Source of the DNA: Coniferiporia sulphurascens | Lineage: Eukaryota; Basidiomycota; Agaricomycetes; Hymenochaetales; Hymenochaetaceae | Length of the DNA stretch: 64,000 nucleotides | NCBI GenBank assembly: GCA_002794785.1 | Contig: NBBA01000006.1 | Location: 1,302,001-1,366,000 of the forward strand | Direction: 5' to 3' | Shown here: one piece after another, positions 13,912-58,243 of the stretch | Numbering within the stretch: the first letter of the stretch is position 1 | Layout of the letters: every line of letters starts with the position of its first letter | Notes under the pieces: model-generated | Database searches by the model: none | What the model saw: only the letters and a program-made list of their open reading frames with translations | What the model was told of the DNA's origin: nothing | Program-made: the position numbers and the translations under genes

Positions 13912-15840
<1,929 letters not shown>

Positions 15841-16942: not shown

Positions 16943-19338
16943 TTATGAAGTTTCTGCACAGCTGTCTATCCACGCCGTTGCCGCGTTTCGGGAAGCCTTC
17001 TCTTGTGCATCCTCTTGGGTTGTTCCAACGCCTGATCCCAAAACAACCCCGTTTACTGTCGAAGAACATCAGCACTATTTACTCCTAATTAGGTTAAAAT
17101 AGCTAAGACATACATGTGAGGGTCATTTTATAAGTCCACTCTCCATTATCGTTCTTTACAGGCACAGTTGGCGCACTCCATCGGAAGCCAGTATGTGAGC
17201 TAATATATTTCTTGAAGATGGGAAGGTAGCGCAAGGTCGGAATGTGATATGCACGCTCCTGGTCTGTTCGATGAAAATAACTTCGTTAGTTTCTCCCTAG
17301 TTACAGGGAATGAATGACCCCACCGAGTATTGCCAACGTGCGGAGGGCCGCGAGTTCTTTCGCGTCTTTCTTTTTCCCTGCGATACTACCAATCCCGTAC
17401 TCTCGGCCTTCAACTATGGAACAATTCGTAATTAACCGAGGTAAGAGCATGCCGAACTTACTCGAACAAATTACGGTGTGTGTAGACGTGTTAGATGGCC
17501 CTAGCACCACGGTATATCTGTACTGCAGACGATCACCATGAAAATACTCGTTCAATGCACCTTGAGCAGCTAGATTCATCCATAAGCTGACTTGCGAACG
17601 GGACTTATGAGACAAAAAGTAGATACAATGCTTACACTTCGAAAGACACCTCAGTATCGACTTAACAGAGGGCGAAGGAGGTGGGGATAATGCCAACCAA
17701 GGTTTCAGATTCGCCGAGAATACGCTTTCTCCAGGCTCGCCGGTTCGCTCCGTTGGCGAATCGGTTGAATTTTGGCCCAAGATTGAGGATAACGCAGAAT
17801 TTGAATCATTGAAGTTGTCTGTTACTACCGCGCCGGATGGCGTGACCTCATTTTCTCCGAGCTTTATATCTGACTCAATCGGGTCTGCGGTCTGGCTGCT
17901 AGGCGTGATAGTGGATAAAGAAGAAGACCTGCGTGAAGGTCGAGTTAATCGGGGTTGTCCGGCTAGACTACCGCTTCCTGTCCTAGTGTCCTGGGTCGCA
18001 TCATGGATGGCGTTCTGGCCACCCCGGGCCGCAGCACTGTGACTGTGATTATTGTCCTCGGTGTAGGAAATATCGCGTTCGCAGGATCCTCCTATGAGGC
18101 AATACGAGCTTGGAGAAGGGGAGTAAAGACATTAGGAAAAAGCGCGTTGCCCAATACCACTCACTCGATAATTGATAAAATCACGTCAACATTTGGTCTA
18201 TGCCAAGGGTCTTTAACCCAGCATACGTGACATAATCCAGCTACTCCTCCCTTATATATTTCGAACTCGCTCCGTTGTAGCGAATGAGGAAATTTAGGCA
18301 ATTCCCCTTTTGATATGCACAACACTACCCGTGGCTCTTCTTTTATGTCGTAGTAAGGAAGTTCTCCCGAAAGCAATTGCTAGATCTCATGATAAAAGCA
18401 ACTCTCAAAATCATTCAGGGGCAACTTCTCACCAGTGCCGTACATCCATAACTCCACACATCTCCCGGCTTTGTCGGAGACTGAGGGCCATTTTCGAAGT
18501 CGAGGTATTCAACGGCTGTCCAGCGACTTGCCCTATTGCCGTCTGATGTCATAGAACTCATAGTTCCATCAAGCTTCAATGTCCTGGATAGTCCAAAATC
18601 CCCCATAAGGGCGTCCCCAGTGTTCGTCACCAAGACATTGTTCTAAGTGGTGGAGTTAGCCCCAGTAGCTTGACTTCGTTGTATAATATACTTGACCACA
18701 CACTTACACCTTTTATATCGCCATGTATAATGTTTCTGCTGTGTATATACGAAAGCCCTTTCGCCATCCCTCGTAGCTGCACGAGACGAGCGTAAGAACG
18801 GATAAATTACTAGGGCCTGTGACTAACGAGATGAATCAAGCTTGTTCGTGGAGCACTTTTAACGTACTCGTCGGCTGTGCCGTTCTTCATGAAATCAGAG
18901 ACTAGACACGGAACTGGATTGCCGGTCTTGTACATCACCCCATGCAACTGCAATACATTAGGATGATGTAGAGAGCTCCAAGTATCGATTTCGCGCTTCA
19001 ATCTCTTTCAAGTGGTCCTGTGAGTAACACCGTGACGAGCTTCAGGGTCCTGGGAGCAGACTCACCTTGATCGACTTCTCCAGGTTCTCGCCTTGGTCGT
19101 GCGCGTAGTGTTTGAGTACTTTAACGGCATACATTTTATCTTTTATTAAGATGCTGGACGGTTGGCAACGAGCTCGATATTTGAAGACCGAGGAGTAACC
19201 GCCGCGAGCAAAAGGATGGCCGTCAGAGTCAACCGCCTCTAACAAGCCGCTAAGGTCCTCAATTCGGGTTTCCAGATCAACCGAGGATAATGGTTGGGTA
19301 GACATGTGGCGATCATTGAAGTCCACGAGGGTACTCAT
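16943..19338 (-). CDS. KDD1: protein kinase with two C-terminal dsRNA-binding domains
   Basis: Ten exons: 19066-19338, 18828-19004, 18708-18776, 18433-18642, 18165-18379, 17636-18108, 17462-17569, 17324-17413, 17114-17263, 16943-17055; 1878 bases, 625 residues. Kinase about 40-315: glycine loop FARGGYSSVF, Lys73 in YAVKVL, HGDIK (168-172; non-RD because Gly replaces Arg), DFG 188-190, DVWSYG, and a C-lobe ending in HRPNVDVI. A Ser/Thr/Pro-rich linker of about 155 residues ends in PWLALSPPPSPS. dsRBD1 about 473-540: helix ALNEYFHGD, strands to EGREYG, then the basic helix GKKKDAKELAALRTL. dsRBD2 about 541-620, less basic (TTQEDAQEKASRNAA). Each dsRBD is split by a phase-1 intron. The acceptor at 17570 could instead lie nine bases further on. 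First gene of the array. Function unknown; by analogy with PKR it could phosphorylate targets when bound to dsRNA (inference). Confidence 0.88.
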
Positions 19339-20262: not shown

Positions 20263-21042
20263 CTACCCGCGACCCCACCCATTTGCCGCAGCAACAACAG
20301 CTGCCTCTCGGGCCTCCCTTTTTGTCCGCCCTGTGGCCTCTCCAATGATCTCATCGTCAACTGCATCAGAAAATGATGAATTCAAAATTCGATAGACTTC
20401 CATAAATTTCAACGGAAAAGCTACGTACGGACGACTCCGCATGACCAGCTGGGATGGTGATCAGGGCCAACAGAGGTATCCACGAACGTAATTCGGTTCG
20501 TCAAATGCTGTTGGACCGTGTAATCCATAAAAATTGGATAGTATGCTCGCGCATTGGAAAGATGAGCCGGGTTCTCCTCCTCTGTGAAAGTCCCAATAAA
20601 TCCTATGCAGAATATGAGCGAAGGAAAGGGCACTGACCTAGCCTCAAGAGCGCTTGTCTGGCGGCTTCGCTATGTGCGGACTTGGTAGTGAAGGCGACCG
20701 CTCTCCCATACTCCTGATCGTTGACTGCCATTAAATGTGGATGTGTAATGAGCATTCATCCCGCTTAACAGCGTGAGACAGGCGTACTATAGCAGGTGGA
20801 AATCCATTGCGGGTTATGTACCTCTGGATCATTAGCTGACGACTGTTCAAATCGGACGGTCATCCCGTTTTTTATGCAAGCATTAGTCAGAGCTGTTCTG
20901 TGACCTATGAAGGAGTTGGGAGCCAACGAAGGGTTATCAATGATCCAGTGCTCCATCCATATTCATACTAACTATTTTTTGGATTCCAAGTCACATCAGT
21001 GGTAGGAGGACTGACGGTTGGCCAATTGATCGTAGACGCCAT
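20263..21042 (-). CDS. DD1: stand-alone tandem dsRBD protein
   Basis: Five exons: 20973-21042, 20788-20904, 20638-20724, 20429-20581, 20263-20360; 525 bases, 174 residues. No kinase. A short 23-residue leader (start MASTINW, context CAATGG) is followed by dsRBD1 (about 24-92; helix RTALTNACIKNG, then NDQEYGRA and the helix KSAHSEAARQALLRL) and dsRBD2 (about 95-174; DDEIIGEATG, then RTKREAREAAVVAAANG). The internal exon lengths 117, 87 and 153 are exactly those of the dsRBD exons of KDD5, and all phases match (phase-1 introns). This shows DD1 comes from the C-terminal half of a KDD gene. Architecture resembles small dsRNA-binding cofactors such as TRBP/PACT or RDE-4; a role as modulator or decoy of the KDD kinases is inference. 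An alternative start at 20956 would remove the first exon. Confidence 0.8.
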
Positions 21043-21584: not shown

Positions 21585-23857
21585 TCATAGATTTTCTGCA
21601 AAGCCGCCCCTCCATACAATTGCCGCGTTTTGGGCAGCCTTCTCATGTGCATCATCTCGTGTCGGTCCAACTCCAACGCCCAGGTCAACTCCATTGACTA
21701 TCGAATAGGTTTAGCACTATTCCATTTTAGCCGAACTCAAAAGTTCTGGACATACATTTGAGAGTTACCGCGTGAACCCACTCTTCGTTATTCTCCAGTT
21801 CAGGCACAACTTGAAAGTCCCATTCAAAGCCTTGATACGCGGTTATGTGTTTTCTCAAAGTAGGCAGATAGCGCAAAGCCGGGATTCTTAATGGGTCCTC
21901 TCGACCTGTCAAGATAGATGTTACTCAAATCCTGTTTATCTCGGAAGAAATCACTTACGAAGTCGTTCCAATGCACGCAAAGCTGCAAGCTCTTCCGCTT
22001 CCTTTTTCTTACCCCGAACACTAGCAAGCCCATATTCTCTGCCTTCAACTGAGGATGGCTCACAGTTGTTGAGTATGGAACGAGGGGCAGATAGAAAACT
22101 CACTCAAACAAGACACAGTATGCACGGGAATATTCGTCGATCCAATCGTCATGGAGCCGTATTCATATTTCAGACGGTCACGGGAAAGACCGTTGTGATA
22201 CTCATTCAACACGACTCGAGCGGCTAGCGTAACATATGATATAACTTGTGAGTAAATAGTTGTCCACAATGCTTACATTTTCCTATGCGCTCCAGTGTTT
22301 TCTCAATCGAGGGAGAGAGAGGAGGGGGCACCTCCGACCATGGCCTTATATCTGCTGCAATTGAGTCCATCTCAAGTTCTCCACTTTCATAATAGACCTG
22401 ACTCACTCCTGCCTATTAGCTCTCCAGTCGTTGTAGTGGGCAAGGAAGGGGGACGGCGTAAGGGCGCAGTCGCTCCAGGAATCTCAGCTGGATCGCCGGC
22501 CTCAGCCTCAGCAAGCTGGGCGGCGTTCTGGATAGCGTTTTGGTCGCGCTCGATGCTGCAATCGTTATCGGCGGTGATAGCAACATCACAGGTCTCTCCT
22601 TTGAAGCAACGCGAGCTTGAATAGAGATTAACAGGATTGGGTAAAGGCGTGCCACTTAATACCACTCACTTGATGAATGACGCAATTATGTCAATACTTG
22701 GCCTATAACCAGGATCTTTAACCCAACACATGTAGCACAATGCAATTATTCCCTCCCTGTATATTTCGAAGTCGTTCCGTTTTAGTGAAGGGGGGAATTT
22801 AGGCAGTTCCCCCTTTTCTATAGTAAATACCACTCGTGCCTCTTCTGCAATTTTGATGTCATAGTATGGGAGCATGCCGGATAAAAGTTGCTAGGATGAG
22901 TGGTAAGGTCAGTCGTCATCGGGAAAACCAAACTTAATTCCATACCAGAGCCGTACATCCATAGCTCCAAACATCCCCCGCTTTGGCTGGTGCTCTAGGC
23001 CCATTCTTAAAATCAAGATACTCGACAGCTGTCCAGCGACCAGCCCTGTTGCCGTCTGACGTTGTTATACTCACGGATCCATCGAGCTTTAATACTCTGG
23101 ACAGTCCGAAGTCTCCTACAAGGGCATTACCGGACTTCGTCACCAAGATATTATCCTGGGCAGAGAAGTATGATTTCAACTGGCCAGAAACGAGATTTTA
23201 ACCAAACTTACGCCCTTGATATCGCCGTGTACAATATCTCTGCCATGTATATAGGATAGGCCTCTCGCTGTCCCCTGCAACTACGTAGAGTAAGCGTGAA
23301 CACGGGTCGAACGTTAAGAAAAAAACGACTTACGAGGTGTATCAAGCTCGCAGTAGGTGCGTCTTCAACGTACTTTGCGGCTGTACCGTTCTCCATGAAA
23401 TCCGAAACTAGACATGGAATTGGGTTGCCACTCATGTACAGGATACCATGCAATTTTAGTACATTAGGATGGTGTAGCAAAATCCAGGTGGAGACTTCAC
23501 GTCTCAATTTCTTAAATAATCCGCGTGAGTGTGTGTATCATGGCAAGTGATGGAGCCTAGCGAACTGACAAAACTCACCTTGATCAGCTTCTCTTCTTGG
23601 GATCTATCCCGATTGCCCGTGTGGTATCTGAGTGCCTTGACGGCGTATACAATATCTCTTGCAAGAACGCCAGGTGAATGGTTCAGTGTTTTGTATAGAA
23701 AGACCGAGGAGTAGCCACCGTGGGCAAAAGGATGACCGCCAGAATCTGCCTTTACTTCTAAAAAGCTACTAAGATCCTCAATCTGAGTTTCTAGGTCGAC
23801 TGATAATGGCGGCTGGCTAGTCGAAGAATGTCCACTGAAATCCGCGCCAGAAGTCAT
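21585..23857 (-). CDS. KDD2: protein kinase with two C-terminal dsRBDs
   Basis: Eleven exons: 23579-23857, 23334-23510, 23212-23280, 22946-23155, 22670-22890, 22407-22615, 22277-22354, 22104-22223, 21959-22048, 21756-21905, 21585-21697; 1716 bases, 571 residues. It is the closest sister of KDD1 (N-terminus SVDLETQIEDL, then FAHGGYSSVF). Lys74 in YAVKAL, HGDIK (170-174, non-RD), DFG at 190, and AVEY in place of APE. The linker is shorter (about 95 residues), is split by an extra 52-base phase-1 intron, and ends in PWSEVPPPLSPS. dsRBD1 about 416-485 (VLNEYHNG; EGREYG; the basic helix GKKKEAEELAALRAL). dsRBD2 about 490-571 (LRYLPTLRKHI; TRDDAHEKAAQNAA). The final exon has 113 bases, as in KDD1 and KDD3. 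Intact, no frame breaks. Confidence 0.88.
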
Positions 23858-24754: not shown

Positions 24755-24757
24755 AGT

Positions 24758-25396: not shown

Positions 25397-25411
25397 GCTA
25401 AATTTGTTATT
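25397..25411. repeat. Target-site duplication, left copy (LINE 2)
   Basis: GCTAAATTTGTTATT, identical to 31870-31884; it follows the (TTTTA)n tail of the minus-strand LINE. Confidence 0.93.
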
Positions 25412-25614
25412 TTTATTTTTATTTTTATTTTTATTTTAAATGCATTTCTATAGCGCGTCATGACTATCTAGTACAAAATACGCTCCAGGGGCCTTTAGGC
25501 CCCTGTATTATGTGAGATGGGGATTGTTATAGATGGAATAATCGTGATGGGACGCTGTAAGCGGAGACGGGATCTGGGCAGATGCCAGTGAAAAGAGAAG
25601 ACGTGGGATCTGGC

Positions 25615-28600
25615 TTAGTTGCCAATGGCAAAACCTGAGTCAGATATATGTACCACCGTGGGGCCACCCGGATCGAAGACGAGGATGGGTTCCACCTCGA
25701 AGGCGGGGTGAGAGTCAAGGAAAGAGGCCAGGATTGGGAGGCCGTCCTTGGAGAACCATTGGGCTTCCGTGGAGGGTAAAGGGGTTTTCCACACCGCTTG
25801 ACGGGCAGTGAGGGTGTGAGGGCAGGAAAGCAAGAGATGAGCTCGAGTCTCCGGAACGTGGCAGACAGGGCACAGGGGGTCGCGTCCCGGAATACGTCCA
25901 AAGTATGCACCGAAGCCGGCGTGTCCGAGGAGTGTCCGGAAAACTTTGCACTTAGTGTGGCGGCCGATAGTGAGGTTCTGCATCAGGGCAGACAGCTTAG
26001 GAGAGGGAGTTTGTGTGGAGCCCATTGAGTGGGCGTCCGATGTCCCTCGGAATTTGTGACAGGCGGAGACCCAGTCGGATTTCCATTGTGAGAGCGCCGT
26101 AGAGGATGCAGCTTCCCGAAGGAAGCGGATGGTGGGTGGGAACTGGATAGTGCCCGGGGGGGGGTTGTCCGCAATGCCCGAGGCGAGGACGTCAGCAAAT
26201 TCATTGCCTTCTACATCGGAGTGTCCCGGAACCCAGTGTAAGTGAAAAAACACACGTGGGAACCGCTTGGTGGCGATTTTGAGACATTTCCGGATGAGGA
26301 GGGCGACGTTGACGCCTGGGGCCGGACGAGGGTCGGCGAGTAGTGTAAGAGCCACTTCGCAGTCTGTGTAGATTTCCACTTGCATGACAGCAGGGTGTAA
26401 ATCGTAAGAGTAAGCTAGCAGCCAGGCGGCATCAGCAAGGGCAGCAAGTTCACAGTCCGTAGCATGGACTGATGAACCAAGATAGGACTCGCGGGTGAGG
26501 ACTGCCTCGCCGCGATAAAACCAGACCCCAGCGGCACCGCCAGAGTAAGAGGATGGGGATGAGCCCGTACGGGAACCGTCCGTATAGATAAGGAGGCGAG
26601 AGGGGACATCCTTCAGTTGGTCGATGAGACCATGGTGTGACTGAATGAGTGTGTCTCAAGCTTCTTGAGAGTGGTCAATCGTGCGGTCGATGCTTACATG
26701 GCGTAAAGCCGGTAAGGCAATCCACGGCGGGCGAGTGTATCGGGGAACTCGTTCGCAACCAGGGGGGACCCGGCTAATGAAGGAGGCAGTAATTGAGCCT
26801 TTACGCGGGGTGTGTATAGGGAGAAGGGTGTGCATGGTGGTAAGGTAACGAATCGCCGCACGAGATTTGGTACGCTCTAGGCGGAGGGGGATGGGTAAAA
26901 TGGAGGCCAAAACCTCAGAGGGGCCGTGTGGAGACGTGCGCCATGATCCAAGGATACGGCAGCACGCCGTGGATTGCACTAAGGTCATCTTCTCACACAA
27001 CCCTTTTTGCCGTGTGCCGGTGAACCAGAGGGGGGATCCCCATAGTAGAACCGGCAGTATGCACCCAATGTAGAGACGTCAGAGGTGTAGCAGGTCAAGG
27101 CCGCGTATGGTGTTGCCGAGGAGTTCCAAGGCGCGTAGGGATGACATGGCTTTGAGGCACATGTGTTCGACATGGACCGTAAACCATAATTGCGCGTCGA
27201 AAAAGATGCCCAACCAGCGGAAAGGCCTGGAGGGTACAATTCGAAGGGGCTGGAAGCCCTGGCGCGGCAAGTGGATAGGGTAGATAAGGGAGTCTTCGCA
27301 TAGATCATGTCGGCGGGTCCAGTGGATGAGCTCTGATTTGTCGTCATCCAGGGAGAGTCCGAGGGCATGGCATGCGGCGGAGAACGAGACATAGGCCTGT
27401 TCGAGGCGTGCAACGTTAGTTGCGATAGAACTCGAAGAAGTGGTCAGGAGGTGGTCGTCCACATAGGCGCGGACAAAGACGAGAGGGTCGGAGACCTGGA
27501 GAGAGGTGAGAAGGCTGGTCGCGAAGAGTGCTGACAGGATGGGCGAGATGGGGGAGCCTTGGGGAATGCCCATGTTGGGTATGGGGGTCAGAGTGTTGGT
27601 AAACCCGTCAAAGGACAGGGCGACGCGACGGTCTGTGATGAAGGACAGGACCCAAGAGACAAGGAGAGGGGGGAACCCTAGTTCTATGAGGACAGCACGT
27701 AGGCGAGGGTGTTGAACTGAGGGGAAGAAACCAGCCACATCGACGGCCAAAGCCATCATGACTTGATGTTTAGCCCAAGCAGACTCAATTTCGTTTACGA
27801 GGTCCGAGGCGGCATCCAAAACGCCCGACTTTTGGCGGGTGCCGAATTGGGTTGAGGGTAGTGCGCCGAGTTCGTTGGCAATGAACTGGATGCGATTGGC
27901 GATAATCTTCTCGAGTAATTTACCCATAGTTTCCTCGAGAGTGATAGGGCGGTATGCGTTAAGGGCGGTGGGGTCTTTCTTATTAAGTTTCCGGAGCATC
28001 ACCACCTTAGTGTCCTTCCAAGGACGGGGGTGGTGTCCAGCATTCAGGCACTCGTTATAGAGAGCGAGAAGTGGAACACTATGGACAGCATGCAAGCTTT
28101 TGAGGGCCTGGTAGCCAATCCCTGTAATGCCCGGGGCACTCGAATTAGAAGTGAGATTGATGGCGTGTTCCAGTTCTTCCATGAGGATAGGATGGTCACG
28201 CATAGGGCGGGCGCCGACGAACAAATAGGTCGGTGGGAGGGCAGTGGATGGTTGGGTACTGAAGTACTTAGACCGGAAGGCAGAAGCCTTCTCCGTGGGA
28301 GAGGTCGCGATGGAGTGTCCTGAAACCAAGGAGGGGATTGGGGCACGTCTAGTGCCCATTGCCCATTTCGCCATAGGCCAGATTTTGTCCGGCTTGATGG
28401 ATGCGGTAAACGAGTCAGCCCATGTGCGTTTTGCACGGCGAAAGATGCCGGCCAACTGTCGTCGGAGCACAGCACGATTTGCCGGAGAAGCTCCGTGCAA
28501 AGCAACCATGTGAGCACGACAGGAGGCGTCCCACCACTTGACCTTGTGGCCCCCTGCCTTCGAAGAAGACGGAGGGTGTGAGGAATCCATGGCGAGAACC

Positions 28601-32526: not shown

Positions 32527-34888
32527 TTATAGGCTTTCTGCAAAGTCGCCCCTCCAGACACTCGCTGCGTTTCGGGCAGCCTTCTCCTGTGCATCTTCCT
32601 GTGTCGCTCCGGCTCCAACACCCAAGACAACCCCATTAACTGTCGCTAGGGATTAGCACCACTCTGATCACCACGGTGATAAAAGACTTTGGGCGTACGT
32701 TTGAGAGTCATCCTGTAAACCCTTCCTCCTCTATTTGTGACGGGCGGACTCCATTTAAAGCCGGGGTACTGCCCTATATGATCTTCCAGTATGGGCAAGT
32801 AGCGTAGGGTGGGGGCTCGTATAACATCTTCGCGAACTAATAACATTTTGAGAAGTCTGAGATTTAGAATTTATCTTTGTAGACGAGGAATACTTACGGA
32901 GAGTTTCCGCTACACGCCAAGCCGCAAACTCGTCCCTGTGCATCCCTTTCCCTTTGACGAGTTCCTTCCCGAGTTCCCTGCTCTCAACTAAAGAAATCAA
33001 CGTTTTAAGCAGCGATAATGACTTTACAGGTACACATACATAGATTCAGGCAGTTCGCAGCAAATTTGGACATGCGCGATGATCCACCGTTCTCACTGAA
33101 TTTGTATTGCAAACCGGGTATACCCAGCTGTCGATCCAGAACTTTATCGGACAATACATCTTGAGGGGCCACGCTGGGTGAGCTCTAAATAACAAGATTG
33201 AGAGCGGCAGAGGTACCCACTTTTAGCAAAATAATGCTTTAGCATGTTCTCAGCGGAAGGCAGAGGGGGCGGTGGTATTGTTGACCATGGGTTCAACGCA
33301 AAGTCGATAGACCGTATCATAGGCAACCCGAATGATGGTGTTTCTCCTGTAAGTGGCAATGCAGTCGAGAATGTATCGCCAGACTCTGTAGAACTGGTAG
33401 CACCAGTCCGTTGTCCTGCTCTCAACATAATTAGCCCGGCTTCCCGGTAAGGTGCGAGGATATCGGCAGGACGCACCTTCAGCGTCGTGATTAAACGAGT
33501 GGGGTTGAGGATATGAGGAGTGGCTTATAAGCGACATCTCAAGTGAGCTATCATCCCCACCCACGACTACGATAGATTGTACTTCAGAGGAGGCGGGACT
33601 TCGGCCCTCAACGTCGTAATTAACATTATCCGCGGTCGCGGCACTACGGGATGGGTCTACACTCAAACCGAATGAGCTTGTAATAATGTCAATTTGTTTG
33701 GGTTCATACAGCACGTCTCCAGTATTACTCACTTGATGATTGATGCGATCATGTCAATACTTGGTCTGTGCTTAGGATTTTTGACCCAGCACATGTAACA
33801 TACTCCCACTATTCCCTCTTTATAGGTTTCAAAATCGTTGCGTTCCAGTGAAGGGGGGATTTTAGGCAGCTCTCCTCTCGACAAACTGATCACTACTCGT
33901 GCATCTGTGTCAACATCATAATAAGGAAGCATCCCGGACAACAGTTGCTAAACTAATGGTCGGGAAAGCCATCGTTGTAAATGAAGCATAACGAACTCAC
34001 CAAAGCGGTGCACCCGTAGCTCCAGACATCCCCCGCCTTGGTTGGGACTTTGGGACCGTTATCAGAGTCAATGTACTCGGCAGCTGTCCAGCGAATGGTC
34101 CCGTTTATACCTGAGGTTGAAGTGGTCGCGGTGCCATCGAGTCTCAGCATCCTTGAAAGCCCAAAATCACCCACAACTGCATCGCCAGACTTCGTCACAA
34201 AGACATTATTCTAAGTTGCAGATATAAATCTAACTGTTAGTCTATGTCATATCATCCGCACTCACTCCCTTGATATCACCGTGTGCGACGTTTCTGCTAT
34301 GCATATATGATAGGCCCATCGCAATCCCTCGCAACTGTGTAGACTTAGTTGAGATAAAGACTGCCTTGAATTGCGACTCACGATATGTATTAAGCTCGGC
34401 TGTGGCGAAGCTGAGACATACTCGACGGCCGTTCCATTTTCCATGAAATCCGAAACTAGACATGGAAACGGATTGTCGTCCATATACATCACTCCCCGCA
34501 ACCGTAAGACATTGGAATGTTGGAGTGGGATCCACGTAATAATTTCTCGTTTTAGTTTCTTTTGAACAAGTTAGTGAATACTACTGCGGCAAGTACGAAG
34601 AACTCATGAATAAACGAAGCCCACCCTGATAAGCCTCTCGTTTTCTCTTCCCTGACTGCCTGCGTAGTATCTCGGCATTTTAACGGCATATGTATCACCC
34701 TTTGTCAAAATTCCAGACATGCAATCGCGAGCTTGATAAAGAAAAACTTGAGAGAAACCACCACGAGCAAAAGGATTACTGTCGGGGTCGCATGCTTCTA
34801 GTAAATCAGTCAGATTCTCGACTCGAGTCTCGAGATCAAGAGGAGATAACAGTTGAGTAGCTGAGACGTAGTCTGCAAGGGGAGCCAT
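32527..34888 (-). CDS. KDD3: protein kinase with two C-terminal dsRBDs
   Basis: Eleven exons: 34625-34888, 34382-34558, 34266-34334, 34001-34210, 33733-33947, 33477-33676, 33221-33418, 33040-33159, 32898-32987, 32699-32836, 32527-32639; 1794 bases, 597 residues. Glycine loop FARGGFSQVF, Lys70, HGDIK (165-169, non-RD), DFG at 185, and AAEY for APE. The linker of about 130 residues has one intron and ends in PWSTIPPPPLPS. dsRBD1 about 446-515 keeps the fold pattern, but its basic helix has drifted (GKGMHRDEFAAWRVAETL), so RNA affinity may be weak. dsRBD2 about 518-597 (LRYLPILEDHI; TQEDAQEKAARNAA). It belongs with KDD1/2 by its N-terminus and by sharing the 113-base last exon. The donor near 33220 has a close alternative (GTACCT). 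Confidence 0.85.
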
Positions 34889-35427: not shown

Positions 35428-37765
35428 CTATCCTTGAAGAGTCCCCTCATAGGCACTTATCCATGCACGTGCAGCATTCTGAGATGCCCGCTCATATGCT
35501 TCGTCCCGTGTCATGCCAACTCCGTCAGCCAAAACAACACCGTCGCCTGATCCTTTTCTGGTGAGCAAACATCCGTATCCCAAGAGACTGTATGACTGAC
35601 ATTTAATAACGCTCTTTATTGTCCACCCTTGATTATCAGCATGACTCGGCCCTGGTAGTACGTCCGATGTTATGCGATCTGCTAAATCATAATCTCTCAA
35701 ATGTGCTCCGAAAATTGGGGTGTATGGTAGAAATGAGAAACGTGATTGTTCTTCAGGGTCTATCTCGAGTCGTTATTTGATACCCCCCATCGCAAGCTTG
35801 CAAATGGATCAAGGACGCACATATTTTTTCCAAAGCACGCAAGGCTGCCATCTCTTTGGCTTCCTGTTTGATTTTGGCTGTGGCTGAGCCGTATTCCTTG
35901 CCTTTGACTGCAATATACTGTTCAATAAGCCCGAGTGCAAGGCACATGGTAAACTCACTCAAACATGTCAAAGTATGGACGGATTGATTCGTCTCGTTAA
36001 TTGACCAATTTGGCTTGTAAATCAGGTCCTTCTGGCTTGCAAAGCCATTGTTCAGAGCCTCCCGCGCGGCTTTGCCTTGGCGATTAGACTTTGACGAGTT
36101 GGAGAGAAAAAGAGTACGCTTACAGATGCCTTTGAAACGAAGAAGCGACTCCACCGAGGGTGACGGAGGAGGAGGCAACTTCGACCATGGTAACCCAGCC
36201 GTCCGGTTCAAGTCAGACATATCGGCAGTTAATGGTGTATTCAAAGGAGACTCGTCTGGAGTGAGAGTCTGAGGGGAGGTCGTATAGTTATAGTCTATCG
36301 AGATGCGCAATCCGGACAGGATGGGTGTAACTTCGAAAAACATTAGACTGTGGAAATTCTTAGGAATGTATAGCTCACCTGTATCGACAGACGTATTCGA
36401 CACTGGTGTCGCCGATGGACGATAATGACCATTCTTTTCGGTGGTCAAATCTATTCCGCTATCGTTCGAGCTTTGACTTCCGGAAGTATTATAGGGGAAT
36501 GGGCGTAAGTCATTGGACGAGTCATCTTCCGGGTCTTCCTCAAAGCAATATACCCTTAAAATTAAAGGCAGATAATTTCAGTAGTGGAAGCTTAGACAGA
36601 AATGTAAGCTTCGTAGGCTCACCCAATCATCGCCAGTAAAACATCGATTCTTGGTCTATTTTCCGAATCCCTAACCCAGCACAGGGTGCATAGGGCCTCG
36701 ACACGCTCTTTGTACCTTTGAAAAGCCAACCGTTGTGGTATTGGAGGGATTATAGGAAGCACGCCGGACCTGATCAAGGTCGGTAGTTGGAGATCACTGA
36801 TATTGTGGTATGGCACTTGCCCCGACCACAGTTCCTAGTGGGAAAGGCATGAGCACAGGAAACTGTTAACTTATTTGGAGCACGTACCAGACAGGTACTT
36901 CCAAACATCCAAACATCGCCTGCCATTGTCGGAAATTTGGGGCCGTTTTCAAAATCAAAATGCTCGGCAGCAGTCCAGCGCCAAGCACCGTGTCCGCTGC
37001 TAGTCATACTGAAGCCCACTTGCTCGGGATCGATGATTGCAGACAATCCAAAGTCCGCGACAAGCGCGTCACCATTATCGGAAACTAGGATGTTGTCCTG
37101 CATGCGTGAGCTACACCAACTCTAAAGGTGAATTTGCAGGGCCACTCACTGCTTTGATGTCCCTATGCACCACACCCTGTTTGTGCAAATAGGAAACTCC
37201 TCTCGCTATTCCTAAAATCTGCAAGAAGAACGTTGAGTTGAAGTAGGATATCCATGAAGAAGCTAGGGAGAACATGCGGGAATAAACTCAACAAATTTCC
37301 AGAACAGCGCCGGCTGAAAGTCTTCTCGCGCAGTATAACACTTCGCTGTTCCGTTCTTCCTGAAGTCCGACACAAGGCAAGGAACAGAGCACTCGTCTCT
37401 GTACAGATAGCCATGAAGGCGGTGAATGTTTGGGTGGCTTAGTCGCACCCATGTATAGGCTTCCTTTAATACTTTCTTTCGAAGACATGAGGCTCCTGCG
37501 CGTATGAATACTTGAAGTTACTTACCTTCGGGATCATCGACCTGGAAGTCCCTCCAAACTGTCTGAAAGACTTGACAGCATAAAACTGTAGGCTATTCGA
37601 GCCTGAATGTATGGGTTTGTACTTGTAAACGTCCGCAAACGCCCCGAAACCAATAGGTGATGGCGCTGCCGGCTCTAGCACCTCACTTAGATTCTTCACA
37701 CGGAGGTCAAAGTCCGCAGGCAAGCGATCCCTGATACTATCCTCGAAGGAGTTGTCTGAAGACAT
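35428..37765 (-). CDS. KDD4: RD-type protein kinase with two C-terminal dsRBDs
   Basis: Eleven exons: 37526-37765, 37293-37475, 37150-37218, 36888-37097, 36623-36834, 36379-36554, 36124-36330, 35959-36075, 35821-35907, 35601-35759, 35428-35546; 1779 bases, 592 residues. The only member with a canonical HRDIK (159-163). Glycine loop IGFGAFADV, Lys65, DFG at 179, and AAEH for APE. The linker of about 128 residues is Ser/Thr-rich and ends in PWSKLPPPPSPS. dsRBD1 about 433-501 is textbook-like (AREALNNGF; KGKEYGSA; IKQEAKEMAALRAL). dsRBD2 about 505-592 (DGVVLADGVGMTRDEAYERA). Two introns (the 48-base one in the linker and the 54-base one in dsRBD2) are multiples of three and could be read through, but homology and phase support splicing. 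Confidence 0.87.
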
Positions 37766-38379: not shown

Positions 38380-40809
38380 CTAGATTCCGTGGGTCCATAC
38401 TGACACAGCATTTCTTGCCGCTTGCTCTGCTGCATCTTGTTTTCTTGATCCCACGCCACTGGCTAAAGTGACGCCGTCCCCTTCAAAGCACGACCACAAA
38501 CATTAGAACCCGATTGCGTGTGGGTAAAAGCGGAAGAAATAAGCGCTCACTTATCAGTTCGCACTTCCACGTCTTCATGTGGTCCACCCCATCATCCTCG
38601 TACGAAAATTGAACGCGGCCTGCTAGACCGTTCTCTGCTAGATAAAGCTTGAATTTGGACAAGTAAGACGGGAAAGCATCAGAAACCGAGGGATCTTCAG
38701 CACCTGCCCATACCTCTAGTTAGTAAAGCAGGTATCTTAAACGAAAAAAATCGATACACACGAAGCCTCATTAGTGCTTGCCGAGAAGCTTCGTCTTCGG
38801 CTTTCTTCTTGTTCCTGTTAGCAGATCGACCGTACTGTACACCGTTAACTTTGAAAAGAGCTCAGCTGCTTCACAAAACACTATAGGCGTGATTACCGAC
38901 TTAAGCAAATCGATGTCCACAGAGCAAGATGGGGTTCGCCATCGGCATTTGTAATTAGTTTAAACGGTGTCGACTTCCTGTGTCCAATCATGTAGTTGAA
39001 CAATGCCGTTTTGTTCGCTTACAGATATCAATACTTGGCTTGCAGAGAAATAAGGAAAGAACTCACAACCTATCTCACCCAGTGTGGTATCGGGAGATGG
39101 AGGCAAAGGGAGGGCACCAAAGCTTTTGCTTCCATTATTTTGAGTAGGACTGTGACTAGCTTGGGTGTATGTGCAGCTTGCTCTGCAAGCGGTCGTAAGT
39201 CGGGCCTAGATGCATTCGTTCTTTGAGGGCCACCGTCTCCCCCTCCGGAATGGGACCAGTCACTGAGGCTGACTGTATCATCATGATTCTCCACCTTCAA
39301 ATGGCTGTTCACTGTAAATCGTTAGACAATTTCTGGTCGAATACCATTAAAATCATACTCTTCACTGTCCCGTTACTTTTAGAGGAGTTCGATGACGGCG
39401 AAGAAGCTGCGCTTGAACTTAAAGTTGTATCGTCTACAAGTCGGAAGCTTTTTTGTTCTGTAAAGTCTGAAGTTCTGCTGTCAGCTGTCAGTGCTGGAGT
39501 ATTGGCAAAGCTGGCAACACTGGATTGCTGATAGGATACCGAGGTCATCCTTTCTACCTCAAATTCTTCTCGAATTGCTTCAAGATCTTTTCCCTCAACA
39601 AGTTCACTGAAGATGCAAGATTAATTTTCTGTAGAAAGAAGCGGAAAAAAAGACTTACCGTAGGATATGGACCAGTTCCTGCATTTTTTTCCGGTCTTCC
39701 TTGGATTTCTTCCAACATAAACCACATAGAAACTCTAAGTTGCCTCTCAATGCTTCAAATTCATGTTTGACAATACCAGGAGCAGGAAAAACGGGGTAGA
39801 GTCCTCGGTTGATCTTTAAAGGGACCAGTTCGAGCTTCGTCTCGTGATAGGGCACTTTCCCTGACCACAACTCCTAAGTCGTCACGTCAACCAGGAAACA
39901 GCTCAGTGAGAAAAGCACTTACAAACATCGTCATTCCAAATGACCACACATCTCCAGGCTTCGTTGGTTCGTGTATGGCCTCGTCACCGAGTTGTATAAA
40001 CTCAACGGGCATCCATCTTATTGCGCTGATATCATTATCAGGATCCGCACCCAATCCTATTTTCTCGAGCAACAACCGTATCCGCGGCAGACCAAAATCT
40101 GTGATTTTTGGCTCTCCGTCAGCGTCAACGAAAATATTGTCCTAACATCTTCTAGTGAGAAACAAACTATAGAGTGGGAAACCAAAATGAAACTGACGGC
40201 TCTCATATCACCGTGCGAATAGCCAAGGGAATGTAGGCAATCGAGACCTTTGGCAATTCCCAGTAACTGTATAAGATGCTTAGCCGCAGTCAACGTGGCA
40301 CGGGAGCCATTAAATGAATATGTACAAAGTTCATGAGATTGATGTCCTTTTGTTTCTGTAGATAGTCTTTTGCAACAATTGATTCTTGATACACCGGACA
40401 AGGCAAGACGCTGTCAACACTGTCGCACCAGCCGAGTATATTTGCGAAGTTACTCGTAGTCCCCGATCGACAAAACTGACTCCAAAATGCCAGTCCTCGC
40501 ATTATTTCCTGGGGCATATATACTCTTGTGAGTACATTAAAAGGGAGTGGCATAAAGAAAAATTACAGTGAACATCTCTTTCTTGGCGGCAGGTGTGATC
40601 GCTTTAGGAGACAGCCCATTGTACACTTTGACGAGGGCGGTGTTGCGCTTGATCTTTACTCTATGCAAATAGAATCCGACCGGCGAGCAGACGAGTTCTG
40701 AACGGGATCTTATGGTATCTGTAAGGTTCGCCACGTAGTTTGTCGTATCAACGCCGTCAAGAAAGTGAGACATATTGAGCGAGTCCATAGTATTCGGGGC
40801 GTCCACCAT
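38380..40809 (-). CDS. KDD5: divergent kinase (degenerate glycine loop) with two dsRBDs
   Basis: Twelve exons: 40567-40809, 40326-40508, 40198-40266, 39923-40141, 39659-39873, 39359-39606, 39274-39311, 39067-39205, 38901-39017, 38762-38848, 38551-38703, 38380-38480; 1812 bases, 603 residues. The loop region reads SPVGFYLHRVKIK, without the GxGxxG pattern. Lys61 (ALVKVY), HGDMR (160-164) and DFG at 180 remain. So ATP binding may be weak, and a pseudokinase role is possible. The C-lobe is normal (KPGDVWSFGM). The linker is long, and its small 38-base exon and neighbouring intron are my least certain calls. dsRBD1 about 452-520 (ALFNYMIGHR; NGVQYGRSA; RNKKKAEDEASRQAL). dsRBD2 about 523-603 (DGVTLASGVGSRKQDAAEQA). 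Its dsRBD exon lengths are those of DD1. Confidence 0.8.
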
Positions 40810-48646: not shown

Positions 48647-49980
48647 CTATGAGCCATTTATTCCAATCACGTAGTCCTCAATCGCGGCCTGCTGAGTCGA
48701 AGGGCCTCCATATGTGAATGGCAGCTGCGGCGGTTGTATAAGAAACTCGGCCTGAGGACTTTCAAAAACAAGGTCATTGCTGGGTGACGAATGAACGGAA
48801 TATCGATACACACCCTAGATAGGAACGCAGAACCTCGTCAAGAGTTTCTTCTTTCTGTTCGCGGGCACGGCGTTCTTCATTGCGTACTACGCGCAATTCT
48901 TCCAAAAGACCCTCGTGTTGTTCGAGTACGAAACGGTGCTTTGCCTTCATAATCAAGTACCGAACCATAGCTGGCGAACGTCCCATGATCTTGCCAGTTT
49001 GTGGATCCATCTGTTGAAGCAGGTACTCGGGTAAAGAGTCCTCGCGCTCATCGCCGCCACCTGACGCCGCGCTCATCCCACCGGGACTCGTACCCGCGGG
49101 GGTTTAAGTAGTCGGGCCGTTCATCGAAGGGCGGCGTCACACCCGCACCGTCTTCGTGTTCCGCCCACAGGATACCCGCACTCAGGTCGGTCGGTGTGTG
49201 CCCCTCAACTTTGAGAACCGGCGCCGACGGATTCGGCCCTGGAGTGCCATCTGCTTCGTTGCTGTCGTCGCGTTTACGCTTACGGCTTCCACCGCGACCG
49301 GGAAGTGGTGGCGGAATGTTATGCTGCAGGCGCATATGCTTCGCCATCGCGTCCGAACGTGTAAACGACTTGTCGCACTCAGGAAGTGGGCAAGTGAAGG
49401 GTTTCTCGCCGGTGTGAGCGCGGATGTGGGAGATGAGTGCGAATCGCGAGGCCTGCTGAATGCCGCGCCGCGAGCAGGTCGCCCACTCACACGCGTACGC
49501 CGGTTTATTCATTCCAATGTGTTCTTGTGTAATATTATTTCGCGATCAAGCCGCCTCCAAGTAATATTGTGGCTCACCATTGTGTATGTGGTCGATGAGC
49601 GTCTGTAAGTGAGAGAACGGCTGCCCGCACTTGTCCCAGAGACAGGTCACACTATCGACCTCGCGGTCGCCGCCACGGCCCTCGGAGATCAATGGGGAGG
49701 CAGGGCGAGAGGCGGACAACTCAATGTCGCAGGACGAGTCCCAGACCCCCTGCTCGCCATTCGCGCCTGGAGAAAAGTACGGTGACGGAGAGCGTGCACT
49801 AAATGGTGGTGAGATGCTGCCCTGCCGACTGTGTGCCATCCTTAATAACGAATGGGAAAGCCCTACGGCTCGACGAGTGCCAAAGGTCGCGACGCTAGCT
49901 GTAACTTGAGGCGGAAAAACGACGAAGTCCCTTTTCCCACGCACGCTCGCGCGGCGCGACGCGGTTACGCTCCCAGACAT
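48647..49980 (-). CDS. C2H2 zinc-finger protein, resembles INO80-complex Iec1
   Basis: Four exons: 49578-49980, 49143-49523, 48814-49060, 48647-48758; 1143 bases, 380 residues. GLI/YY1-like fingers span the first intron: CLWDKCGQPFSHLQTLIDHI, then YACEWATCSRRGIQQASRF and HTGEKPFTCPLPECDKSFTR with the zinc ligands in place. A basic patch GGSRKRKRDD (nuclear signal) follows, then a helical region LPEYLLQQMDPQTGKIMGRS continuing into a Lys/Arg/Glu-rich coiled coil. This order matches fungal Iec1-type zinc-finger subunits of the INO80 remodeller, though I name it only by resemblance. The second intron (49061-49142) has a GTGTGA donor; a 33-base alternative exists but is too short. Confidence 0.72.
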
Positions 49981-53100: not shown

Positions 53101-53973
53101 GAGTAGTATGAGTCTGAATCGCTCTAATTCAGCTCCAGGTGAGTGCCAGTTTCCACAACTACAATTGCAGGGTAACCCAAGGGTGTCATCTGTTTACATC
53201 CAGATTTACACGCTGTTCTGGCGCGCGCCGGACCTTACCAGGCCTCATCGATTCATTCCCGAAGGCGCCTCTCTTTCGGCTCAAGGGTGACACGCACAGA
53301 TAGGACCAGGCCTGTATCCTCTTCGATATCATCTCCCCCTCCATTGCCCCTTCCTCTTCCCCAGCCTGTACCGGAAAATGCGCATGACGCTCGAAATGCG
53401 CGAGAGCGCAGACTACTCAGCAATCTGTGGTTGATGTCCGCCGCGACATTCAGGCGTTTGGACAAGCTCGATCAAACACGAGGCGCCATCCAGGAAGCAG
53501 AAGCTCTGGACGAAGAAAATGAGGCTGTCTGGGTACAGGTGCGTGCTTGCGGCGCGGTACATACCGCATTTTGGTGCAGGCTGACATGTATACGGCTTTT
53601 CCTCTCCCAGCTCGGGTTGTTCTTCTTTGCACGCGGTGAAGAAGGGAAGGCCATTGAGTCCTTCCATAAGGCGCTGTTTATTGCACAGGACTCCGTGCCC
53701 GCTACCTTACATCTCTGTCAGTTGTACCTCACATCACGCGACCCTAACGTACGATCAAGTTCGTATGGCGCTGTCGACATCGCCGCTGGAATGTTGGAGG
53801 ACTTGACGCGCGGTCACGGCTGGGATGTCGCGGAAGCGTGGTATCTTCTTGCAAAAGCGTACCGCATGCAGGGTCGTGCAGAGCGTGAGCGCGAATGCCT
53901 AGTTTTTGCGCTAGGACTTTCTGAGGTGCGCGGTGTGAATGATATAGGCACTGCTGTCGGATGGTGTCTATGA
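50112..53973 (+). CDS. YPP1: Ypp1/TTC7-like TPR protein
   Basis: Nine exons: 50112-50268, 50328-50539, 50587-50824, 50879-51432, 51494-51890, 51947-52630, 52701-53138, 53204-53538, 53611-53973; 3378 bases, 1125 residues. Helical TPR-like repeats run along most of the chain (for example ILRHMARLLHVAGDHDLATR; DLEKAVELCRRAVEAESQEV; KAIESFHKALFIAQDSVPAT; AWYLLAKAYRMQGRAERERE). A Ser/Pro-rich disordered insert of about 200 residues separates the middle and C-terminal repeats, as in fungal Ypp1. In yeast Ypp1 with Efr3 holds the PI4-kinase Stt4 at the plasma membrane. Start has context AAAAATGG and the N-terminus is helical. The intron 50540-50586 (GTTCGT donor) is the least certain. Confidence 0.85.
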
Positions 53974-55690: not shown

Positions 55691-55930
55691 CAGAACCCCG
55701 AACCCTTAAACCTGCCCAAAGTATGCACTGACTTCCGTTCCCCATATGTAATATTTGTCAGCCCTCGCAGAAATCGGAAAATACGGTGTTCCCCGTAGAC
55801 GCTTCAGACTAAATTTTACCATAACCGGACGTGGGCACTTATACTCTGTCTTAATATATAGGACCACAGCATGATCACATACGATGTATAAAGCTTGACT
55901 CCGTGATGAGAACCTTCGAACACGATCACT

Positions 55931-58243
55931 ATGCTCATAGCGATGCCCCCGGGTCATCAACCTATCCACTTACCGTATGCTGTCGACTATACACCATACC
56001 TCACAGAAATCAGCAAGCACCACGAGGTCGAAGGTGGTTTTGCCTACATCTACAAAGCCAAGCTCTACGGGAAACGGGTGGCCATCAAGGTTCTTAAGCA
56101 TAAAGGGCCGGGTCCAAGGGACCCAAACGTGGAAGCCAAGGCACGTCAACTGTTATTTGGCGGTGATCTGTTGTGCTGATATCCAAGTAAATATTGCTCA
56201 CAGGTGGCCCAACAAGAGTATATGCTATGGCATCCTCTCAACCATCCAAATATCCTTTCGTTGAAGGGAATATGCTTCTTCCGCTCAGATACTGTGGTCC
56301 CATCGTTCATTTCTCGATGGCAGGAAAACGGCCGGATTACCGATTTCGTTTCCCGAAGACCTGACTTGGAAATACTCAATACAGTATGTTCGTTTGGTGA
56401 CATATACGCACTTTATTTCTTTACAGTTCCTCCAGTTCGAACACATTGCCATGGGTGTCTCTTATCTTCACGACAATGATATAATTCATGGGGACCTTCG
56501 AGGCGTAAGTTATTTCCGCATTATATCTTGGATTCGTTCTATGCGGTGAATGAGCGCTCTATCCAGGCGAATATCTTAGTCTCTGGTAGTGGCAGACCAT
56601 TGGTGACGGACTTCGGAATCGCGAAATTGGACAATGGCAGAGGGGTGGAAATGTCGACAGCGATGAATGGGAATCATCGATGGATGGCCCACGAACTATT
56701 CAGAAGAATCAATGGGGTACATGAGGAAGCTATCGTCGTGCTTCGCACAAAAGAGAGCGATGTCTGGTCACTTGGGATGCTTTTTAAGGTAAGAAGGGAG
56801 GTGGTATGTTATCGCGCCGTAAGCTCACGCTTTCAATCACTGAAATAAGGAAATAATGTCAGGGAAAGTCCCGTACCATGAATATGGGCATCACACTGTT
56901 CTTCTGCACATTAATGACGGGTTAATGCCTCAATTTCCGCCCGCGCAGCATCAAGAATGGACACGGCACGATGATATGCTGCAGGAAATCTGCTCCCGTT
57001 GCTGGGAAAAAGAGCCGAATGCGAGGCCAGATATGAAAAATGTCATATCACTATTAAGGTACATGGAGATATTTTAGTCTAGAGAAGGCTTTCCCCTGAT
57101 ATAAAGACTTATCCCGACAGAGCATCGAGATCAAGCCCCCTTCCTGTTGGGTCCGCAAAAAGCGCTCGCTCCCCTCCTATGGGCAATGAATCGCGACACT
57201 CTTCTCCTAAGTCGCGATCACCGACTTCAAGACCAAAGCACAATCAGGAAGATGATACCCTCACACTATCAGGAGTCATAGAAAATCTAAATCTTCGACC
57301 AACACCCCATCCCAACAAAGGTGGGGGCTCAAACGTCATCGACGACAGTCCGCAAGGACCTGTGCTAGCAGATATCGGACCCGACAACGCTCGTGGATAC
57401 TCGCCTCGCAGAACAACTACTTCAGCAGTGCCGCCTTCAGCTCCACTTCCACAGACCGCTAAACCACTTAGGCCCGGAGACTTGCCTCCCTCTTCTCCGT
57501 ATGCAGCCCAGGCCGTTGGGGAAAGAGGAGATCTGGACGTAAAACAGTTGCTGAATATTAACAGGTCCCCTACCCAAGGGTGCACGGTATCTCCTGGGGG
57601 TATGTCCTCTGCTAAGTTCTGTAACGGGAACTTTCCTTAACATTGTTTTTTCTTCGCACCACAGTGGAACTAGATAACTTCCTTGCCCGAGAGGGTCTTA
57701 AAGACTCATTTCGTGTGGAATACAGCCACCCGACTCCTTATGACGAGCAAACATGGATAGCAACTTGTTTCTGTAAGTCCCCTTGGTAAACGGTAACAAT
57801 GGGAGAAAACGTCTCATGAGGCTGTAGTTAAAGGAGACGAGATCGCAAAGGCGATAGCAACGAGGAAAACTCTGGCATACGTCGAGGCTGCAAAGACTGC
57901 CTTAGATAAGCTCCGTTGGTCATCTTTACTTATTGTTTTATAAATAATAAAGATGCTCACATTTCTAGTAGGTGGTTTACCTCTTCAGCGGCATGGTTAT
58001 GCCCTACACAACAATACAAAATCGCTTGATTTATCTCTTCTTGAAGAAAAATTCGTTGCTAAAGGCGCACCCCATAAGCCGACGTGGGAATGTATACTTT
58101 CCAGTGAGCTCCGACCCAGAGATTCTGCATGGTCCTTCTTCTTATACATAAATGTTATAGTCACCGGGGAAGAGGTCTCTCGGGGAATTAGTGAGACAAA
58201 GAAGAAAGCTAGACAAAGTGCACGATTGCAATTATATGGCTAG
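55931..58243 (+). CDS. KDD7: protein kinase with two C-terminal dsRBDs, opposite strand
   Basis: Ten exons: 55931-56140, 56204-56383, 56427-56504, 56567-56788, 56850-57058, 57121-57599, 57665-57772, 57828-57914, 57969-58103, 58161-58243; 1791 bases, 596 residues. Glycine loop VEGGFAYIY, Lys53 in VAIKVL, HGDLR (151-155, non-RD), DFG at 171, and AHE for APE. The first intron has a GC donor (AAG|GCACGT), shared with KDD6. The linker of about 160 residues is Ser/Pro-rich. dsRBD1 about 460-525 (VELDNFLAREGLKDSFRVEY; TRKTLAYVEAAKTAL). dsRBD2 about 526-596 ends in a strongly basic helix (SETKKKARQSARLQLYG). A second ATG (codon 5) is an alternative start. It lies 12 kb from the rest of the array and points the other way, so it was moved or the block between was inserted or inverted. 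Confidence 0.86.

What the first reader, a model, noticed from the sequence alone, without database searches (positions are those of the whole stretch)
16943..58243. A seven-gene family joining a protein kinase to two dsRNA-binding domains
Seven paralogues (16943-19338, 21585-23857, 32527-34888, 35428-37765, 38380-40809, 41827-44009, 55931-58243) each splice to kinase, linker, dsRBD, dsRBD. Kinase motifs (Lys, HGD/HRD, DFG, DVWS.G) and dsRBD signatures (strand pattern ending xGxxYG/xGxxLG followed by an Ala-rich, in many cases Lys-rich helix) are directly readable. Vertebrate PKR joins the same two modules in the opposite order and shuts down translation on dsRNA. I know of no described fungal counterpart. 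Local expansion with sequence divergence is typical of defence genes. A dsRNA sensor against mycoviruses or transposon RNA is an inference, not shown.
Basis: partly seen in the sequence, partly recalled or inferred. Interest (0 to 1): 0.93.

Follow-up and report, generated by a model that had tools for sequence, protein, structure and literature searches.

The report
Fungal kinases carrying two dsRNA-binding domains
A mushroom-class fungus carries a cluster of seven genes that each join a protein kinase to two domains of the kind that grip double-stranded RNA, the same two parts as the animal antiviral sensor PKR but in reverse order and apparently on a different kinase branch, which points to a possible fungal alarm for viral or transposon RNA that has not been tested.

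Summary
Pfam finds a kinase in 7 of 7 and dsrm above its cut-off in 6 of 7 (K3 19.4 of 23 bits); both dsRBDs in 4 of 7. Annotated Hymenochaetaceae proteins show the fusion too: Coniferiporia weirii (P0001, P0121) and Phellinidium pouzarii (P0002, K6-K5 order kept). A JGI protein from a 1140-base contig runs from kinase C-lobe through both dsRBDs over all six intron sites, as a cDNA would. The dsRBD profile best matches PKR's tandem dsRBDs (1.2e-13); the kinase profile best matches EGFR, Eph and RAF. So it is PKR-like in design, on a tyrosine-kinase-like, probably FslK, kinase. Most likely a dsRNA-triggered, proximity-activated signalling kinase; dsRNA binding, substrate and antiviral role are inferred. 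Ten capped library searches listed no report; one paper's table of extra domains could not be opened.

The parts
16943..19338 (-). K1: kinase (18165-19338), linker (17636-18108), dsRBD1 (17324-17569), dsRBD2 (16943-17263); 10 exons, 625 aa
   Evidence: Spliced model; PF07714 4e-35, dsrm 52.9 bits in two stretches
20263..21042 (-).
   Evidence: dsrm 72.1 bits in two stretches; best PDB match PKR dsRBDs 2.7e-4
21585..23857 (-). K2: kinase (22670-23857), dsRBD1 (21959-22223), dsRBD2 (21585-21905); 11 exons, 570 aa
   Evidence: PF07714 7e-31, dsrm 42.6 bits in two stretches
32527..34888 (-). K3: kinase (33733-34888), degenerate dsRBD1 (32898-33159), dsRBD2 (32527-32836); 11 exons, 597 aa
   Evidence: Pkinase 3e-32, dsrm 19.4 bits, below the 23-bit cut-off
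35428..37765 (-). K4: kinase (36623-37765), dsRBD1 (35821-36075), dsRBD2 (35428-35759); 10 exons, 608 aa; orthologue of Coniferiporia weirii M0805_001266
   Evidence: P0001 74% identical over the whole query
38380..40809 (-). K5: kinase (39659-40809) lacking the helix-C Glu, dsRBD1 (38762-39017), dsRBD2 (38380-38715); 12 exons, 595 aa
   Evidence: orthologue in the second half of P0002
41827..44009 (-). K6: kinase (42886-44009), dsRBD1 (42182-42441), weak dsRBD2 (41827-42127); 10 exons, 549 aa; first intron GC-AG
   Evidence: orthologue in the first half of P0002
55931..58243 (+). K7: kinase (55931-57058), linker (57121-57599), dsRBD1 (57665-57914), dsRBD2 (57969-58243); 10 exons, 596 aa; first intron GC-AG
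   Evidence: orthologue P0121 = Coniferiporia weirii M0805_001273

Best explanation
The cluster encodes a family of dsRNA-responsive protein kinases. A tandem dsRBD module at the C-terminus binds double-stranded RNA from mycoviruses, transposons or other structured RNA, mainly through dsRBD1 in K1, K2, K4 and K5 and perhaps through dsRBD2 in K7 and D8. Two or more molecules on one dsRNA, or held together by the non-canonical dsRBD, bring the N-terminal tyrosine-kinase-like domains together so that they phosphorylate each other on the activation loop and then a downstream protein that is not predicted to be eIF2alpha. D8, with the same tandem module and no kinase, would act as a partner or as a competitor and brake. 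Shown: the architecture, its presence in other Hymenochaetaceae, intact catalytic residues in most copies. Inferred: RNA binding, activation by dimerisation, substrate, biological role.
For: Kinase plus dsrm in one spliced protein. Annotated proteins of other species with the same fusion: P0001, P0121, P0002; these are gene predictions too. P0004 (350 aa, 1140-base contig) runs from the kinase C-lobe to the end of dsRBD2 across all six K4 intron sites, as a cDNA would. Best PDB match of the dsRBD profile is the PKR tandem dsRBD region, 1.2e-13. Catalytic Lys, HxD Asp, Asn and DFG invariant in 7 of 7, helix-C Glu in 6 of 7. Activation loop with 5-8 Ser/Thr/Tyr in K1-K4 and K6, 2 in K7, 1 in K5. 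The strand3-helix2 half is net positive in dsRBD1 of K1, K2, K4, K5, K7 and D8 (+1 to +4) and in dsRBD2 of K5 (+1) and K7 (+3). Kinase under purifying selection among K1-K3 (dN/dS 0.08-0.14). Orthologues keep kinase and dsRBD1 about equally well (K4/P0001 87% and 80%; K7/P0121 87% and 88%; K5/P0002 60% and 57%).
Against: No binding or kinase assay exists. The exact KKxAK RNA-contact motif (recalled) is present only in K1 dsRBD1; the strand3-helix2 half is neutral in K3 dsRBD1, -2 in K6 dsRBD1 and net negative in six of eight dsRBD2 (K1-K4, K6, D8); dsRBD2 of K1-K4 has an acidic helix start, and K3 dsRBD1 and K6 dsRBD2 look eroded, so several domains may not bind RNA. K5 has lost the helix-C Glu and may be a pseudokinase. 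No sign of positive selection. A search with the K2 tail found no relative among 3939 candidates. Both AlphaFold jobs failed (pLDDT 42 and 44), so the fold is not confirmed by structure.
Confidence: 0.5

Rival explanations
1. The dsRBDs are mainly protein-protein modules (as in the third dsRBD of TRBP or PACT, recalled): they dimerise the kinases or dock them on RNAi or RNA-processing proteins, and the kinase regulates those partners without itself sensing dsRNA.
For: Acidic, neutral or eroded helix-2 starts in many domains; a shared dsRBD2 subtype with a Trp just after helix 2 in K1-K5, D8, P0004 and the second half of P0002; the genome has Argonaute (Piwi) matches and, by reading, Dicer- and RNase III-like dsRBD genes to dock on.
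Against: dsRBD1 of K1, K2, K4 and K5 keeps a lysine-rich helix-2 start, and dsRBD2 of K7 and D8 a Lys/Arg one, hard to explain if RNA contact is dispensable.
Confidence: 0.25
2. A regulator of endogenous RNA (growth, fruiting or stress), like a localised RNA-binding kinase, with no defence role.
For: Purifying selection on the kinase among K1-K3; orthologues, and K6-K5 order, kept between genera; PMC3937382 proposes roles of FslK kinases in mushroom development (section 4 read).
Against: Expansion to eight members, uneven domain decay and an interrupting retrotransposon look more like a dispensable defence-type family than a core regulator; this is only suggestive.
Confidence: 0.17
3. Gene-model artefact or decaying relics: kinase and dsRBD genes lie side by side and were joined wrongly, or the cluster is pseudogenising.
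For: Models are hand-built and guided by paralogue similarity; Pfam sees two dsRBDs in only 4 of 7; K3 dsRBD1 and K6 dsRBD2 look eroded.
Against: Eight full-length frames without stops; seven genes share the kinase intron phases 0,0,0,0,2; four database proteins show the same join, one of them crossing all six intron sites.
Confidence: 0.04

Closest known systems
PKR (EIF2AK2) of vertebrates
   Same: A protein kinase joined to two dsRBDs in one protein; the dsRBD profile's best PDB match is PKR's N-terminal tandem dsRBDs; fish and amphibian PKR genes also occur as up to three head-to-tail tandem copies (PMC2291453, abstract read).
   Different: dsRBDs are C-terminal here, N-terminal in PKR (recalled); the kinase profile's best 60 PDB matches hold no eIF2alpha kinase; catalytic loop HGD[ILM][KR]..N in 6 of 7; no known link to eIF2alpha.
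FslK / tyrosine-kinase-like kinases of Agaricomycetes (PMC3937382)
   Same: Lack the TK-specific AARN and proline motifs and have P at the fourth place of the GxR(L/M) motif, 7 of 7; Agaricomycete; the paper reports lineage-specific expansion, for example in Fomitiporia mediterranea.
   Different: Most FslK have no extra domain (16 of 241 do; table not opened); these seven carry two dsRBDs.
Tandem dsRBD proteins without kinase (TRBP, PACT, plant DRB4; and poxvirus E3, which has one dsRBD; recalled)
   Same: D8 has only two dsRBDs, as a partner or competitor of a dsRNA-binding enzyme would; its 8 PDB matches at E <= 1 include PKR (2.7e-4) and, weakly, DRB4 (0.014) and E3 (0.028) chains.
   Different: D8 lies inside the kinase cluster and shares its intron site; its function is untested.
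PKZ of fish
   Same: Shows that nucleic-acid-binding modules are swapped onto sensor kinases (start of abstract of PMC7137213 in a listing).
   Different: Z-nucleic-acid domains, eIF2alpha kinase, vertebrates.

Membership tests
Protein kinase superfamily (active) | Catalytic Lys, HxD Asp, Asn, DFG, helix-C Glu | tested here: met
   Lys, Asp, Asn, DFG invariant in 7 of 7; Glu in 6 of 7 (Gly in K5); PF07714 above cut-off in 7 of 7
dsRBD (PF00035) | Significant dsrm match | tested here: met
   6 of 7 kinases and D8 above 23 bits; K3 19.4 bits is below
dsRBD (PF00035) | RNA-contact residues (helix-2 KKxAK; recalled) | tested here: inconclusive
   Exact only in K1 dsRBD1; Lys/Arg-rich variants in dsRBD1 of K2, K4, K5, K6 and dsRBD2 of K7 and D8; weaker or absent in the other nine (read)
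PKR / eIF2alpha kinases | Kinase domain of the eIF2alpha-kinase family | tested here: inconclusive
   Best 60 PDB matches are EGFR, Eph, one 'tyrosine-protein kinase' and RAF entries, no eIF2alpha kinase; 2507 sequences matched and only 60 were shown; no tree with eIF2alpha kinases was built. Points against membership.
PKR / eIF2alpha kinases | dsRBDs N-terminal to the kinase (recalled) | tested here: not met
   dsRBDs are C-terminal in 7 of 7 and in P0001, P0002, P0121, P0004
PKR / eIF2alpha kinases | dsRNA-induced autophosphorylation and eIF2alpha phosphorylation | not testable with these tools
   Needs biochemistry
FslK (PMC3937382) | No AARN in the catalytic loop, no P in motif 2, P in the fourth place of motif 3 | tested here: met
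   7 of 7 for each, read, compared with section 4 of the paper
FslK (PMC3937382) | Falls in the FslK clade of the kinase tree | not tested
   No FslK reference sequences were used; own tree has none

The most novel reading that the evidence does not exclude
Hymenochaetaceae fungi have independently invented a PKR-like dsRNA alarm: a clustered, diversified family of dsRNA-activated tyrosine-kinase-like kinases with an in-cluster kinase-free dsRBD regulator (D8), acting beside RNAi against mycoviruses or retrotransposons.
Probability: 0.38. Interest if true: 0.92.

Novelty: new variant of a known kind. Interest (0 to 1): 0.8.

Why it matters
Antiviral defence in fungi is usually discussed in terms of RNA interference (recalled). 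A kinase fused to a tandem dsRBD module would be a direct, testable candidate for a signalling-type dsRNA sensor in fungi, would be a convergent counterpart of PKR with a different kinase and reversed order, and would give a first concrete job to part of the large set of tyrosine-kinase-like kinases of mushroom-forming fungi, whose functions PMC3937382 says still need experiments.

Tried and rejected
Automatic splice modelling with a codon model trained on one neighbouring gene gave partial or wrong exons and was replaced by hand-built models (K7 needed one more base, mended). Searching the protein collection with the K2 tail alone found nothing. A reading in which K3 is frameshifted was dropped: a 61-nt intron gives a full frame. 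Structure prediction of P0004, alone and with five other rows, gave pLDDT 42 and 44; no fold search was run because such models give meaningless matches. Six-frame Pfam dsrm over the genome is insensitive to intron-split domains: at E <= 0.001 it saw 2 of the 8 cluster genes and at E <= 10 7 of 8, so absence elsewhere is a soft result. NCBIfam gave only sub-cut-off matches.

Considered and rejected: two separate neighbouring genes (P0001, P0002, P0121, P0004 speak against it); true PKR orthology (order not met, nearest solved kinases TK/TKL); pure chance dsRBD look-alikes (dsrm E-values 1.2e-5 to 5.5e-20 in six kinases and D8).
Full report
WHAT IS THERE. The window lies in a 39.3-Mb, 31-contig genome (G000:C6:1302001-1366000). 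I built spliced models by reading the sequence and testing the frames. All eight genes give full open frames: K1 625 aa, K2 570, K3 597, K4 608, K5 595, K6 549, K7 596, D8 174. The models are hand-built and were guided by paralogue similarity, so they are not independent of the hypothesis; the independent support is the database proteins below.

DOMAINS. Pfam: a kinase above cut-off in 7 of 7; dsrm above cut-off in 6 of 7 kinases and in D8. K3 reaches 19.4 bits against a cut-off of 23. Two dsrm stretches (each E <= 1) are counted in K1, K2, K5, K7 and D8; only one in K3 (in dsRBD2), K4 (dsRBD1) and K6 (dsRBD1). Half-domain profiles made from the 16 domains recover 16 of 16 first halves and 16 of 16 second halves in the window, with one extra weak hit for the first half; this is a training-set result, not a test.

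SHARED GENE STRUCTURE. In the models all seven kinases have introns of phases 0,0,0,0,2 in the kinase part, and all 16 dsRBDs are split by a phase-1 intron at the same place, just before strand 3. The intron before dsRBD1 is phase 1 in six kinases and in D8 and phase 2 in K6, whose splice site there is uncertain. K6 and K7 each start with a GC-AG intron.

INDEPENDENT SUPPORT. The K4 search of 5.8 billion proteins (7995 candidates scored, 1127 hits, 120 listed, 3 of the 120 carrying PF00035) returned P0001, Coniferiporia weirii M0805_001266 (74% identity, whole query), P0002, Phellinidium pouzarii EW145_g4230 (1025 aa), and P0004, a 350-aa JGI protein from a 1140-base contig. P0002 reads as a K6-like gene followed by a K5-like gene, the same order and orientation as here. 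A tail-profile search (5797 candidates, 3 hits, one a bacterial kinase) added P0121, Coniferiporia weirii M0805_001273, the K7 orthologue; it did not return P0004, which was in the query alignment, nor P0002, which is too long for its limits, so absence from that list means little. P0121 has a kinase and one dsrm match (24.7 bits) and ends inside dsRBD2, where K7 has its last intron. P0001 and P0121 are each listed on a contig of 32,665 bases, presumably the same one. P0004 runs without a break over all six K4 intron sites from the kinase C-lobe to the end, as expected of a cDNA; an intronless gene is the alternative. Both named species belong to Hymenochaetaceae. Only P0004 and the second half of P0002 show two full dsRBDs; P0001 and P0121 have dsRBD1 and about half of dsRBD2, and the first half of P0002 has half of dsRBD1 and no dsRBD2 in its annotation (read).

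KINASE TYPE. Lys, HxD Asp, Asn and DFG are invariant; the helix-C Glu is present in 6 of 7 (K5 has Gly, while its orthologue in P0002 keeps Glu). The best 60 of 2507 PDB matches are EGFR, Eph receptors, one entry named tyrosine-protein kinase, and RAF. The sequence features given for FslK in PMC3937382 (section 4 read) are met in 7 of 7 for each of three motifs. In a tree of 27 rows (9 of 36 candidate rows dropped: 2 duplicates, 5 from loci holding several kinases, 2 short; one kept row, L054, may also mix two kinases) K1-K5 with orthologues form a clade (SH-aLRT/UFBoot 97/98), K6-K7 with orthologues another (94.1/96); all together they form one group only with weak support (65.6/50). A single origin of the fusion is therefore likely but not proven.

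dsRBDs. The 16-domain profile matches PKR's tandem dsRBDs best among PDB chains (1.2e-13; 64 sequences matched, 60 shown), followed by a double-stranded RNA-binding protein 4 and two RNase III chains. The canonical KKxAK (recalled) is exact only in K1 dsRBD1 (KKDAK); K2 KKEAE, K4 KQEAK, K5 KKKAE, K6 KKLAQ are variants; dsRBD2 of D8 (KREAR) and K7 (KKKAR) are basic there; dsRBD2 of K1-K4 has an acidic helix start (read). RNA binding is therefore plausible for some domains and doubtful for others.

ELSEWHERE IN THE GENOME. At E <= 10, six-frame dsrm gives 14 hits: 8 in this cluster (7 of 8 cluster genes; K3 missed) and 6 hits at five other loci. By reading, those five look like a DEAH helicase with two dsRBDs, two RNase III-like genes, a Dicer-like gene and a small single-dsRBD gene; no frame in them matched the kinase profile (loci of about 3 kb). 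Of the other kinase places that K1 and K7 matched in this genome I examined 19 with roughly 1.5 kb of flank, and 0 of 19 showed a dsRBD half-domain at E <= 1; the remaining kinase places were not examined. The fusion thus appears confined to this cluster, within the limits of these searches. Argonaute (Piwi) matches lie on four contigs, so RNAi and this family probably coexist.

EVOLUTION. Among K1, K2 and K3 the kinase has dN/dS 0.08-0.14; dsRBD1 gave 0.35 for one pair and no usable dS for two; dsRBD2 0.15-0.44. dS is 0.96-3.1 in the usable comparisons, so these are rough, but nothing suggests positive selection. Orthologue identities: K4/P0001 kinase 87%, dsRBD1 80%, dsRBD2 68% (50 of 92 residues aligned); K7/P0121 87, 88, 69 (48 of 72); K5/P0002 60, 57, 56; K6/P0002 kinase 66%, dsRBD1 59% (37 of 64), dsRBD2 4 of 14.

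MECHANISM. Best reading: dsRNA binding by the tandem module clusters the kinases, which activate in trans and signal to an unknown substrate; D8 is partner or brake. Steps shown: architecture, conservation, catalytic residues. Steps inferred: everything from RNA binding onward. PKR-type eIF2alpha phosphorylation is not expected from the kinase type. Fish and amphibian PKR offers a parallel of tandem, lineage-specific duplication of a dsRNA kinase (PMC2291453, abstract read).

LITERATURE. Ten searches of the PMC library listed no title or abstract start that reports a fungal kinase with dsRBDs; two of them held far more papers than were listed (15 of 196, 15 of 1,393), and most subscription papers are not in the library. 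PMC2838846 (passages by term) reports 65 accessory domain types in fungal kinases and has no occurrence of dsrm, dsRNA, double-stranded or RNA-binding in its main text. PMC3937382 says 16 of 241 FslK members carry additional domains in a table I could not open, so prior tabulation cannot be excluded.

VERDICT. A real domain architecture in fungi, shared by at least three Hymenochaetaceae genomes (this one by its close relatives, the two named ones by annotation) and, as far as searched, undescribed; a new variant of the known kind 'dsRNA-binding kinase', more likely convergent with PKR than orthologous to it. Function is open but directly testable.

Noticed in passing
20263-21042 (-): Eighth cluster member D8, a kinase-free tandem dsRBD gene between K1 and K2, with the strongest dsrm score of the eight (72.1 bits).
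   Followed up: yes
9335-13100 (+) and 25410-29181 (-), with further open frames to 31836 (-): Two non-LTR retrotransposon copies, 86% identical, the first with RVT_1 and RNase_H; the second sits between K2 and K3 and has gag-like upstream frames (by reading).
   Followed up: partly
linkers of K1-K5, P0001, P0004, P0002 second half: Conserved proline-serine motif (PW..LPPPPSPS-like) shortly before dsRBD1, seen by eye; not evident in K6 and K7. Possible docking or phosphorylation site; unexplained.
   Followed up: no
40326-40809 (-): K5 has lost the helix-C glutamate although its Phellinidium orthologue keeps it; the glycine loop looks poor in both. Possible pseudokinase.
   Followed up: partly
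G000:C1:3474936-3478025 (L063): Small single-dsRBD gene elsewhere in the genome which, by reading, has a phase-1 intron at the same site; possible relative of the donor of the kinase dsRBDs.
   Followed up: partly
46036-46509 (+), 49051-49545 (-), 53176-53970 (+), 2355-8835 (-), 14703-15685 (-): Unrelated neighbours: alginate-lyase exon, C2H2 zinc finger, TPR protein; CAD/URA2-like and tubulin-like genes (by reading).
   Followed up: no
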